This document shows, piece after piece, positions 28,701-64,000 of a DNA stretch of 64,000 nt. Numbering within the stretch: the first letter of the stretch is position 1; each line of letters opens with the position of its first letter. Both the position numbers and the translations under genes were made by a program. The notes beneath the pieces are model-generated. The model made no database searches and was not told where the DNA came from. It saw only the letters and a program-made list of their open reading frames with translations. Source of the stretch: Hyaloperonospora brassicae (taxonomy: Eukaryota; Oomycota; Peronosporomycetes; Peronosporales; Peronosporaceae); NCBI GenBank assembly GCA_947650285.1, contig CANTFL010001366.1:27283-91282 (forward strand), given 5' to 3'.

Positions 28701-30582
28701 GACCTACCTTACGTTAAGTCGCAACTTTTACTGGCCCCGCCAATATCAGTTCGATCGCAAGTACATTCGCTCTTGCGAAGACTGTCAATGAGTGAAGCCC
28801 AATCCTTCATCCCGTGCCCCTTTACAGACTCTACCGGTCCCGGCAGAGTGCTGGCAGTACGTTTTAATGGACTTCGTCTTCGGGGAAACCGAAGACGCTC
28901 ACAAGAATATTGGTATTCTTGTGTTTGTAGACCGATTTAGCAAGATGGTCCATCTTGCTGCTGTCCCTGAGTCAATCAAGGCTCAAGGTTGTGCTCGTGT
29001 CTTTCTAGACACGGTCTTTAGACTCCACGGGTTACCCCGGGAACTCGTATACGACCGTGACCCTCGGTTCACGGCGGCATTTTGGCAAACCGTGTTCCGT
29101 ACTCTCGAAACACGATTAAAGATGTCTACTTCTGATCATCCGGAAACAGATGGTCAGACGGAACGTGCGAACCGTGTCCACGAAGAGATCCTTCGAGGAT
29201 ATGTCCACTCGTTTCCGAGTTGGAGCGAATTCCTACCCATGGTGGAATTCGCCATCAATAATTCGGTGCATGCTTCCACACAGCACACACCGTTTTACGT
29301 GAATGGTTTACGCCATCCACGTGTGCCCACCCTTATAGAGTGTGACTCTTATATAAGGGGGGGAGGGACTCGCTCGAGCAAAATCCGTTCTGGCTCGTGG
29401 TTATCACGTTTCGACGCTAACGTCGTCACGTATGATGCCGATGTCGACAATGTCGACATCGATGAAGAACACCACCTCAATAATAGCGATGACGCTATTA
29501 TTGACTCGGATGATGATGACGATGATGGTATATTCAGCATCGTCAACGATTATGCCAGCGAGGAAGAAGACAACCTCGCTGAAGAAGAGAACAATCTCTT
29601 AGCAGTGCGCACGAAGCGCACTGCCAGACAAAACAAAGAGTCAACATAGAACTTCCTGCTGACTCGAGAAGCGGTAGTCCGTTTCGTTCAGGACTCCAGC
29701 GCAAATGCGGTGGACCGTCAGAAACGGAACGCAGACAAGAATGGAAGAGCTAATGTTCTTTCATTTAAGGTTAACGACCTAGTATTACTGTCTACGGTAA
29801 ACTTACCTGAACATGCAGTCAATAGTGTCGGCAGTAGTAAACTACTGCCGGAATACATTGGGCCATTTCGAGTGTTGCATCGCAAGGGCAATGCATACAC
29901 ACTCGAATTGCCACGTAGGATGCGCACGCATCCTACGCTTTACGTGGGGAGGCTTAGGTCGTACTTTCAGTACGAGACTTCTTCTTTCGATGAAGATAGC
30001 CCCCAAGTTCAAGATTATCCATCAAGTTCTTGCGTTCGCGCTCCAGACGATCCGTCTGGTCGCGCAGATATGATATCTCGGAACTCAACCGAGATATCTC
30101 CATGCGAGCTGTCGCCAGCTCGCCGAATAGGAAGCGGACATCCCGCTCGACCTGAAGCTGCGCCGTGGCATAATCGGCGCGATCCCTCGCCCGATCAGCC
30201 TCGTGACCCTTGCGGTTCTTCCGCACGGTGTCGGTCAAAGCGTAGCGCCGATCGCGCTCGTGCTTCAAGTCATCGCGCAATTCATGGATTGCGCGATCCA
30301 TCTCGTAAGGGTCGAGATGGTGAACCGAATCATCTGGAGGAGGTCTTTTCTCCTCCACCACATCCTTTGGTGGATGCTCACGGTGATCAACGCTTTCTAG
30401 TTGAGCGTATCTAGAATCACCGTGACGATTCAGGATCAAGGACGAGCTACCTCGTCCAGTGGCGGGGGTATCCACCCTCTTGGAACAGCTGGGAGCCCCG
30501 CTCTCAGCTGTTGATGGATGTTGAAGGTCTCGTCCGCCAGTATGACGAGACCCATCCAAAGAGTCCTGTGGCCCATCGGTAA
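25672..30582 (+). pseudogene. Element A pol (protease-RT-RNase H-integrase-chromodomain)
   Basis: A single frame of about 1636 codons interrupted by seven stops (26290 TAA, 26581 TGA, 27628 TAG, 28099 TAA, 28789 TGA, 29647 TAG, 30412 TAG) and no frameshift. Protease: LVDCGASNNFV with DVILGLPWLRKYQP. RT: KYCVMKQWPLSREQ through YFDDVFVHS near 27526 (catalytic Asp pair present). RNase H: VVGDASDFAIGCAL and YTDHASLRTA. Integrase: H-x-H-C-C zinc region (HDAPSGGHRGREK, SCEDC), then MDFVFG, YDRDPRF and TDGQTERANRVHEE (D,D,E). An acidic insert (DSDDDDDDG) follows near 29500. The chromodomain at 30395-30560 reads [20 protein letters not shown]. Its 3' third overlaps an antisense frame. Confidence 0.92.
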
Positions 30583-31518
30583 CACGCGCCCTAGGTGCTT
30601 GTAGACGGATTGCAAGTTTGCAATCGCGTCCCGCATCTCAGCCGAGATGTGTGCCCTTCCCCAGGGCGAACTTAGGGAATACACATCCCTATGTGCACGC
30701 TGCGAGTTGTCAACACAACTCGCACAAGGGTCTCCCCATGTGAGGCAAGGAATGCCTGCCTCACTCGATAAACAATGCAACCGGTACCTAGCACCGGTTG
30801 GCGTTCGCCGTTCGAACCTGAGGCGTGTCGCCTCAATTTTCTTGAGCCACCCTTCTCGTCCAAAATTCTTTACGTTTTGAACGAGCGCGTTCCACGCAGC
30901 CAAAAGCGAGGCCTTGTCACGCTTTTGGTTGCTGTTGTACCATCAATGTCTAAGAAAGACATCGAGATAAAAATCTTCCTCAGCGCGAAAGTTCCTCGCG
31001 CTGGAACTCAAGCCGTGAAGCTCAGTTGCATCGAATAAGGGTATTCGATGGTGTTGGCCTGTCTCGTGAGACAGGCTTTTGATGAGCTGTTTGGGCAAAC
31101 GCCACGGCTTCAACTCATCACGCTTCACAGTGGTACCCTTGTCGGTACCACGGCTCCCAGATTGACGACGGCTCGCGCCATCGTCAACACGCTCGTGCGA
31201 AAACGCACGAGCCGGCGGTGGTGAAGAATAGAACTCACCACCCTGATCATCATCATCATCACTGCCGAACAGACTGTGATGCAAATCACGAGTCCGTTCG
31301 TTCGGCAGTAGTCTTGGCGAATACTGAGGCGTCGCCGGTGAGCGAGACGCCTCTGGAGCATTGCCCGAGTCAGACACGTCTGACTCGCCAGAGTAGATGA
31401 CCTCCACATCGGGGTCATCGTGCGCACGCGGCGTGATACCGCGTGCACCTGCAACACCTGTTGCTGCAGGCGAAGAAGGAGCAGCAGACGACGAATCGTC
31501 TGCCGCTGATGCTGGCAC
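29954..31518 (-). pseudogene. Element A antisense reading frame (unknown protein)
   Basis: It starts close to the 3' LTR and runs back into pol. From 31518 the frame is open to 30436 with one stop (30943-30945), then continues in another frame from 30559 to 29954, so about 520 codons with two lesions. The N-terminal part is acidic and disordered (VIYSGESDVSDSGNAPEAS, GSDDDDDQGG). The middle has a Cys cluster, [11 protein letters not shown] (C-x6-C-x2-C). The C-terminal 201-codon part is highly charged with coiled-coil character (MDRAIHELRDDLKHERDRR, LSSEISYLRDQTDRLERERK). It overlaps the pol C-terminus and chromodomain in antisense. Elements B and D have counterparts in the same place. I do not recognise the family, and transcription is unproven. 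Confidence 0.6.
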
Positions 31519-63416: not shown

Positions 63417-64000
63417 AGGTCGGCGAACGCGACCGACGCTGCTGACTCCTTCCACGATCCCGCGAACCGTAACGTGCGTGAATTGGCGATCGACGACGGT
63501 CTTCCGAGCGACTCCGACGTCTTCTACGAGGCTCGGGAGCATTTGGATACCTTGACGGTCGAGAGCGACTACGAGAACGACCTCGGTGGTCGTAAGACAA
63601 ACGATCTCGACTACGTGAACGCCTCCATTAATCGACAGGGCGTTCCCTCATGTGACGCAACGCAGATAGTTGGAGCTCTGAGAGGCTCCTCTCATAGCGT
63701 CCGATCCATGGTCGGATGTGCTGGGGCATTCCCCGTGCACACACCATGTCGTCCCATTCCTGCCGCATTGGTCGCGGTCTCTCCATGTGACACCGTGGAC
63801 ACCCTTCACGGACATGGACGTAACACATGTGGAACCCATCACGAGTCAAATGACATATGCGTTGTCGTAAGTCGCCAATAGCGTGGTCGCCATGAGCACT
63901 TACGCGTCCCTCGATCCAGGACGTGAAGGATGCCCCTTCACGTCGACTCGCGGTCCAGCGTCTGATGAAGGCACACCAAGATCGTTGCAGTGCGTCTTCA
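62848..64000 (-). pseudogene. Element D antisense reading frame (unknown protein, N-terminus outside the window)
   Basis: From the right edge the minus frame is open to 62848 with one stop (63628-63630), about 384 codons. The upstream part has a Cys/His cluster (ICHLTRDGFHMCYVHVREGC, then PRCHMERP). After the stop comes an Arg/Ser-rich block (RSRSRSRPSRYPNAPEPRRR, SEDRRRSPIHARYGSRDRGR) resembling SR-type RNA-binding tails, then a charged helical tail (AMNGLLDAREMAERARDRAA, AATEAAERTRREQQGLV). It overlaps the sense pol C-terminus and chromodomain, in the same relative phase as in A and B. Family not recognised. Confidence 0.6.

What the first reader, a model, noticed from the sequence alone, without database searches (positions are those of the whole stretch)
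29954..63849. Three chromodomain gypsy elements carry a long antisense ORF over the pol 3' end, always in the same phase
Seen: A (31518-29954), B (38953-37652) and D (64000-62848) each have a long minus frame beginning near the 3' LTR and overlapping the chromodomain region of pol by roughly 480-630 bp. With sense codons starting at phase p, the overlapping antisense codon's left base is at p+1 in all three. Shared architecture: acidic disordered N-terminus (A, B), Cys/His cluster (A, D), charged helical tail (all). B is intact (433 codons) although its gag-pol is ruined. Inference: a conserved accessory gene of this lineage, possibly an RNA- or nucleoprotein-binding factor, driven from the 3' LTR side. 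Antisense ORFs are known in some plant gypsy elements; I do not know a description for oomycete chromoviruses.
Basis: partly seen in the sequence, partly recalled or inferred. Interest (0 to 1): 0.88.

Follow-up and report, generated by a model that had tools for sequence, protein, structure and literature searches.

The report
Antisense gene overlapping retrotransposon pol end
Oomycete jumping genes in this window carry a real extra protein gene on the opposite DNA strand, partly written over the end of their own polymerase gene; such backward genes are known in plant and fungal elements, and this overlapping oomycete version looks like a new variant of them.

Summary
Elements A, B and D each carry a long minus-strand frame over the chromodomain end of pol, in the same phase; in A and B it starts about 100-130 bp internal to the 3' LTR. 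It is a protein-coding gene. In B's 273 codons outside pol, dN/dS against two divergent copies is 0.21, with no stop in 268-269 codons; the five other frames have 8 to 26 stop-bearing codons. A gives 0.45. In B, variants shared between copies are constrained, single-copy variants nearly neutral. In D (one divergent copy) the antisense frame is constrained over pol's linker and tail, pol over the chromodomain. In A's overlap only pol is constrained against the one divergent copy. Relatives occur in Hyaloperonospora, Peronospora and Phytophthora. A chromodomain imprint on the other strand shows in 32 of 35 tested, 29 of 35 in a stricter test. The proteins have disordered parts, a core without a found fold (B, D) and a coiled coil; B is not demonstrably homologous to A or D. 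Antisense genes are known in Grande, RIRE2, Retand and Boty: a new variant of a known kind. Transcription and function are inferred.

The parts
37652..38953 (-). Antisense gene of element B, 433 codons, intact
37652..38133 (.). Overlap of B's antisense gene with the 3' end of pol (linker, chromodomain, short tail)
38134..38953 (-). B antisense-only part (273 codons), dN/dS 0.21 against L057 and L058
29954..31560 (-). Antisense gene of element A (start approximate), broken here into 191, 155 and 201 aa frames; open over about 535-540 aa in many other copies
29954..30582 (.). Overlap of A's antisense gene with the pol 3' end (629 bp in copy L018)
62782..64000 (-). Antisense gene of element D, cut by the contig end and broken in the window (frame 62848-63600 and an open frame 63628-63999)
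62782..63881 (.). Stretch where D's pol frame (as open in copy L010) overlaps the antisense gene
61680..63416 (+). D pol fragment: integrase core (below the curated cut-off), Tf2-1-like SH3 domain, chromodomain
36497..37516 (+). B pol fragment: integrase H2C2 and integrase core (the latter below the curated cut-off)
39060..39598 (.). 3' LTR of B (5' counterpart 31954-32440; 97% over 429 bp and 93% over 108 bp); the antisense ATG lies 106 bp from it, on the internal side
31695..31953 (.). 3' LTR stretch of A (90% to 24096-24355)

Best explanation
It is a bona fide antisense accessory gene of a lineage of oomycete Ty3/gypsy elements with a chromodomain. In A and B it starts about 100-130 bp internal to the 3' LTR on the minus strand and ends inside pol, over the linker between the integrase SH3 domain and the chromodomain. 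The two reading frames share DNA and, best seen in D, divide the constraint: the antisense frame rules where pol is a linker or tail, and pol rules at the chromodomain. The product has disordered parts (acidic at the N-terminus in A and B, RS-rich in the middle in D), a folded core (with Cys in A and D) and a C-terminal coiled coil that is encoded opposite the pol linker (predicted). Most likely mechanism (inferred): an antisense transcript starts at or near the 3' LTR, and the protein dimerises, binds nucleic acid and regulates the element's own expression or integration in the nucleus, as proposed for Grande gene23 and known for HTLV HBZ. Probability of a coding gene under selection: about 0.95. 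Of the nuclear regulator role: about 0.4.
For: Selection outside pol: B against L057/L058 dN/dS 0.21 at dS 1.26/1.30, 0 stops in 268/269 codons, other frames 8-26 stop-bearing codons. A against L060 0.45, 0 stops in 323 codons, other frames 7-33. Antisense third positions take 136 of 249 differences in B against L057 (p 4e-12), and 40 of 67 shared variants in A (p 2.5e-5). B shared variants N/S 0.45 with 0 stops (3.1 expected), single-copy variants 0.88 with 8 (5.9 expected): source elements are selected, dead copies drift. Overlap: D antisense dN/dS 0.31 over the linker and 0.38 over the tail, 0.96 over the chromodomain, where pol has 0.32. B antisense-wobble class 31 of 160 in the overlap against 9 of about 210 in pol-only DNA (p 5e-6). 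Integrity: 31 of the 98 rows cover at least 415 of 433 residues without a stop (my count). Relatives in Hyaloperonospora, Peronospora and Phytophthora, with a chromodomain imprint on the other strand. Architecture.
Against: No transcript, peptide or promoter was seen: an oomycete initiator-like 8-mer (consensus recalled) occurs once upstream of A and not upstream of B or D. No family or fold names the product. In A's overlap the antisense frame is not conserved against L060 (dN/dS 1.74, one stop, 88 codons) while pol is (0.26). D rests on one divergent copy, L059, itself broken (1 and 2 stop-bearing codons in tail and linker); position bias p 0.015 and 0.011, chromodomain 0.18; close D copies differ too little to tell. 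A's single-copy variants are also skewed to third positions (43:42:73, p 0.003), unlike B's. Pol's synonymous changes are not significantly fewer in B's overlap (p 0.23). A, B and D are not shown to be one family. The imprint fails in 3 of 35 relatives and 6 of 35 in the stricter test.
Confidence: 0.8

Rival explanations
1. By-product: the antisense frame is open only because pol's codons in this phase seldom give stops on the other strand.
For: In all three families this phase expects the fewest stops; similarity of antisense proteins in the overlap partly mirrors the chromodomain; in A's overlap only pol is constrained against L060.
Against: Most of the B and A frames lies outside pol and shows dN/dS 0.21 and 0.45; chance of a stop-free overlap 0.0015, 0.005 and 0.00009.
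Confidence: 0.03
2. Silencing device: the antisense RNA, not the protein, matters, forming double-stranded RNA with the genomic RNA.
For: Proposed for antisense ORFs in plants (PMC7264820, passages); small RNAs in both orientations map along gypsy elements of P. infestans (PMC3522703, passages).
Against: Codon-level selection and stop avoidance require a protein; an added RNA effect is not excluded.
Confidence: 0.07
3. Structural or export accessory protein (Gag-like, Rev-like or a particle chaperone) instead of a transcriptional regulator.
For: Coiled coil, Cys residues in A and D, a strongly basic RS-rich middle in D.
Against: Element D has its own gag with a CCHC knuckle; acidic N-termini of A and B would fit a nuclear regulator better (inference).
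Confidence: 0.3
4. Anti-silencing factor that keeps the host from shutting the element down.
For: The antisense proteins differ past recognition between B and A/D, although pol pieces are 38-73% identical in alignments of 50 residues or more; no known fold found.
Against: No direct evidence; dN/dS well below 1 inside families.
Confidence: 0.2

Closest known systems
Antisense additional ORFs between pol and 3' LTR of plant gypsy elements: Grande gene23, RIRE2, Retand (review PMC7264820 and Retand survey PMC11963269; passages read)
   Same: Position near the 3' LTR, antisense to gag-pol, kept in many copies and several species, function unknown; gene23 is nuclear.
   Different: [quoted passage not shown] here the gene overlaps the chromodomain end of pol and no TRP28 was found.
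Boty antisense gene brtn of Botrytis cinerea (named in PMC7264820 and PMC8365987, passages; original paper not read)
   Same: Antisense gene in a retrotransposon of a filamentous plant pathogen.
   Different: Fungal host; sequence and overlap not compared here.
HTLV-1 HBZ, with an antisense promoter in the 3' LTR (named in PMC7264820 and PMC11963269, passages; protein details recalled)
   Same: Antisense gene on the 3' LTR side; acidic part plus C-terminal coiled coil.
   Different: No bZIP family match; transcription not shown here.
Chronos chromodomain gypsy elements of oomycetes (PMC5348765, passages)
   Same: Oomycete gypsy elements with a chromodomain at the end of pol.
   Different: Chronos has a second, plant-like RNase H, not found in the pol pieces searched here; the word 'antisense' does not occur in that paper's main text.

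Membership tests
Antisense additional ORF of LTR retrotransposons (class, not one protein family) | Lies between or over the pol end and the 3' LTR, antisense to gag-pol | tested here: met
Antisense additional ORF of LTR retrotransposons (class, not one protein family) | Conserved in many copies and in other species | tested here: met
   (lists are capped)
Antisense additional ORF of LTR retrotransposons (class, not one protein family) | Under selection as a protein | tested here: met
   B and A outside pol; D weaker, one divergent copy
Antisense additional ORF of LTR retrotransposons (class, not one protein family) | Antisense transcript | not testable with these tools
   no RNA data; initiator-like motif scan uninformative
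Retand TRP28 proteins (PF04195) | TRP28 domain | tested here: not met
   not among the families listed at E up to 0.1 for 15 B-type, 8 A-type and 16 D-type members
Boty brtn | Sequence relation to brtn | not tested
   no brtn sequence was fetched
HBZ-like bZIP regulators | bZIP domain | tested here: not met
   no bZIP model listed at E up to 0.1; MafG chains at E about 0.3 for the A profile
Chronos | Second, plant-like RNase H in pol | tested here: inconclusive
   only gypsy RNase H models matched, but pol is broken into pieces and not all was searched
Chromodomain-bearing gypsy element | Chromodomain after integrase | tested here: met
   PF00385 E 2.9e-11 in D; in A and B recognised by motif in copies

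The most novel reading that the evidence does not exclude
An ancestral, dually coded gene of Peronosporaceae chromodomain elements: an antisense regulator whose coiled coil is written into the integrase-chromodomain linker, so that integration targeting (pol) and the regulator must co-evolve, while the folded core of the antisense protein has been replaced at least once (A/D type against B type).
Probability: 0.3. Interest if true: 0.75.

Novelty: new variant of a known kind. Interest (0 to 1): 0.6.

Why it matters
It shows by codon-level tests that a backward gene in a retrotransposon is a protein under selection; the passages I saw for plant and fungal cases argue from presence and conservation. 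It extends the kind to oomycetes and to an overlap with the chromodomain end of pol, a domain thought to steer integration (PMC5348765, passage). It also explains some 'uncharacterized' database proteins, including one UniProt 'RxLR effector candidate' (P0092) and one 'core-binding domain' protein (P0088), as likely element genes, which matters for effector catalogues of plant pathogens.

Tried and rejected
By-product of pol codons: rejected on the part outside pol. One protein family for A, B and D: the first A-D profile match (E 1e-5) did not hold over the core alone (E 0.029, reversed control 0.42), and B matched neither. Known domain or fold: Pfam, NCBIfam, PDB sequences, Foldseek and the second-look aligner gave coiled-coil or weak matches only; a fold missed there is not excluded. 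UniProt's 'core-binding domain' name for P0088 suggested a tyrosine-recombinase-like helical domain (my recall); Pfam and NCBIfam gave no such match. Promoter: four patterns gave one initiator-like 8-mer upstream of A and one TATA-like hexamer upstream of B. Lower synonymous rate of pol in B's overlap: not significant. The first imprint test used a profile that held the tested family's own chromodomain; a leave-one-family-out repeat was weaker, mainly for D-type relatives. Lesions of antisense against pol per copy were not counted, because the copies had been chosen by their antisense match. Literature: the listings show no title or abstract start about an antisense ORF in oomycete elements; most listed papers were not opened, and subscription papers and preprints are not held.

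Full report
What is there. The window lies in an unnamed 100.56 Mb assembly of 898 contigs. The named relatives of the antisense proteins come from Hyaloperonospora, Peronospora and Phytophthora, so the host is an oomycete of that group (inference). Elements A, B and D are gypsy elements. Pfam finds reverse transcriptase in A and D, gypsy RNase H in all three, the integrase zinc domain in A and B, the integrase core in B and D (below the curated cut-off) and a Tf2-1-like SH3 domain in all three; the B reverse transcriptase piece had no Pfam match but is 55% identical to A's. A chromodomain is a Pfam match in D and is recognisable by motif in copies of A and B. The pol pieces are 38 to 73% identical in alignments of 50 residues or more, so the three belong to one broad lineage.

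The antisense frames. B has 433 codons from an ATG at 38953 to 37652. A is split in the window, but many other copies have frames of about 535-540 aa. D is cut by the contig end; copy L010 has 478 codons. One search listed 98 matches to B's protein; by my count 31 of the 98 cover at least 415 of the 433 residues with no stop. One search listed 150 matches for A's first piece and one search listed 55 for D; these are lower bounds, because only the best candidates are scored. The antisense ATG lies 106 bp internal to the 3' LTR in B and about 125 bp in the A copy L018; in D the distance was not measured.

Is it a gene? For B I used 22 close copies including the window's own, plus two divergent ones, L057 and L058 (24 of the 98 matches; one of the 22 is partial, and the rest were not fetched or not granted). 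In the 273 codons outside pol, B against L057 and L058 gives dN/dS 0.21 at dS 1.26 and 1.30, with no stop in 268 and 269 codons. The other five frames give 0.32-1.85 and 8-26 stop-bearing codons; the one with a low ratio (0.32-0.33) shares the antisense wobble position and has 19. Among the 22 close copies, variants shared by two or more have N/S 0.45 of the neutral expectation and no stop (3.1 expected); single-copy variants have 0.88 and eight stops (5.9 expected). That is the pattern expected if source elements are selected and dead copies drift. A (20 close copies and the divergent L060) gives dN/dS 0.45, no stop in 323 codons, and shared variants 12:15:40 over codon positions 1:2:3; its single-copy variants are skewed too (43:42:73), unlike B's.

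The overlap. In all three families the third base of pol codons faces the second base of antisense codons, so a change silent in both frames is almost impossible: 0.0-0.1 expected per stretch, 0 or 1 seen. D against L059: antisense dN/dS 0.31 over the linker, 0.38 over the part after the chromodomain, and 0.96 over the chromodomain itself, where pol gives 0.32. The antisense comparison holds 2 and 1 stop-bearing codons in the first two stretches, position bias is p 0.011 and 0.015, and mirrored frames give 0.46 and 0.36 but with 6 and 13 stop-bearing codons. The eight close D copies differ too little to tell. In B's overlap against L057 the antisense wobble class, which is pol's second base, changed at 31 of 160 sites, against 9 of about 210 in pol-only DNA (p 5e-6), while pol's own third base is not significantly slower (26 of 160 against 45 of about 210, p 0.23). 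Against the reading: A against L060 in the overlap follows pol (0.26), not the antisense frame (1.74, one stop), over the 88 codons that aligned. Given pol's residues, a stop-free antisense frame has probability 0.0015, 0.005 and 0.00009 in B, A and D, computed on copies with open frames.

Conservation beyond this genome. Searches of a 5.8-billion-protein set found 84, 8 and 26 relatives of the B, A and D proteins (about 8,000 candidates scored in each). I asked whether the residues of 35 of these 118 relatives are compatible, in the observed phase, with a chromodomain core on the opposite strand. With a profile from all three families, 32 of 35 scored at least 3.6 standard deviations above shuffled proteins; P0095, P0097 and P0109 did not. 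With the tested family's own chromodomain left out of the profile, at most 5 of 200 shuffles reached the score in 29 of 35 (13 of 13 B-type, 5 of 5 A-type, 11 of 17 D-type), and no shuffle did in 20 of 35; P0093, P0095, P0097, P0109, P0114 and P0117 fail. The same arrangement is thus inferred for several genera without their DNA. Relatives of one type resemble each other, so they are not independent tests, and this speaks for the arrangement, not for selection.

How it most likely works. Shown: a selected protein gene, opposite in sense, sharing DNA with pol. Inferred: antisense transcription from the 3' LTR side; a dimeric, nucleic-acid-binding product that acts on the element's own expression or integration. 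Gene23 of Grande is nuclear and transcribed antisense, and HTLV uses a 3' LTR antisense promoter (PMC7264820, passages). Retand antisense proteins are proposed to bind DNA (PMC11963269, passages). Similar workings are plausible; membership in those protein families is not met or not tested.

Novelty. The kind is known. The oomycete host, the overlap with the chromodomain end of pol and the codon-level evidence were not seen in the listings, nor in the passages read; the survey of oomycete chromodomain elements (PMC5348765) does not use the word antisense in its main text. I rate it a new variant of a known kind, interest 0.6.

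Noticed in passing
window 6-13275: Tandem array of a 147 bp unit, about 90 copies at 93% match, with strong AT skew; since 147 is a multiple of three it carries long minus-strand ORFs (up to 1,425 aa). The two longest have no Pfam family.
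   Followed up: partly
window 58953-59314: A 66 bp tandem repeat (5.5 copies), downstream of the gag piece of element D.
   Followed up: no
window 48663-53297: A copia element with 98% LTR stretches (48663-48937 and 53023-53297), with gag_2 and RVT_2 pieces.
   Followed up: no
window 31953-31954: The 3' LTR stretch of A ends where the 5' LTR of B begins, so two elements lie head to tail almost without spacer.
   Followed up: partly
L010:2064-2531: D's pol frame stays open for about 155 codons past the chromodomain, but changes there fit no constraint in the pol frame (24 pol-silent, antisense-altering changes seen, 25.2 expected): perhaps a by-product of the antisense gene, the reverse of the usual assumption.
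   Followed up: yes
P0088, P0092: UniProt names one A-type antisense protein 'Core-binding (CB) domain-containing protein' and another 'RxLR effector candidate protein'; both look like retroelement genes.
   Followed up: partly
B copies: Some B copies keep long gag-like, pol and antisense frames all open, so the family may have been active recently (described only).
   Followed up: no
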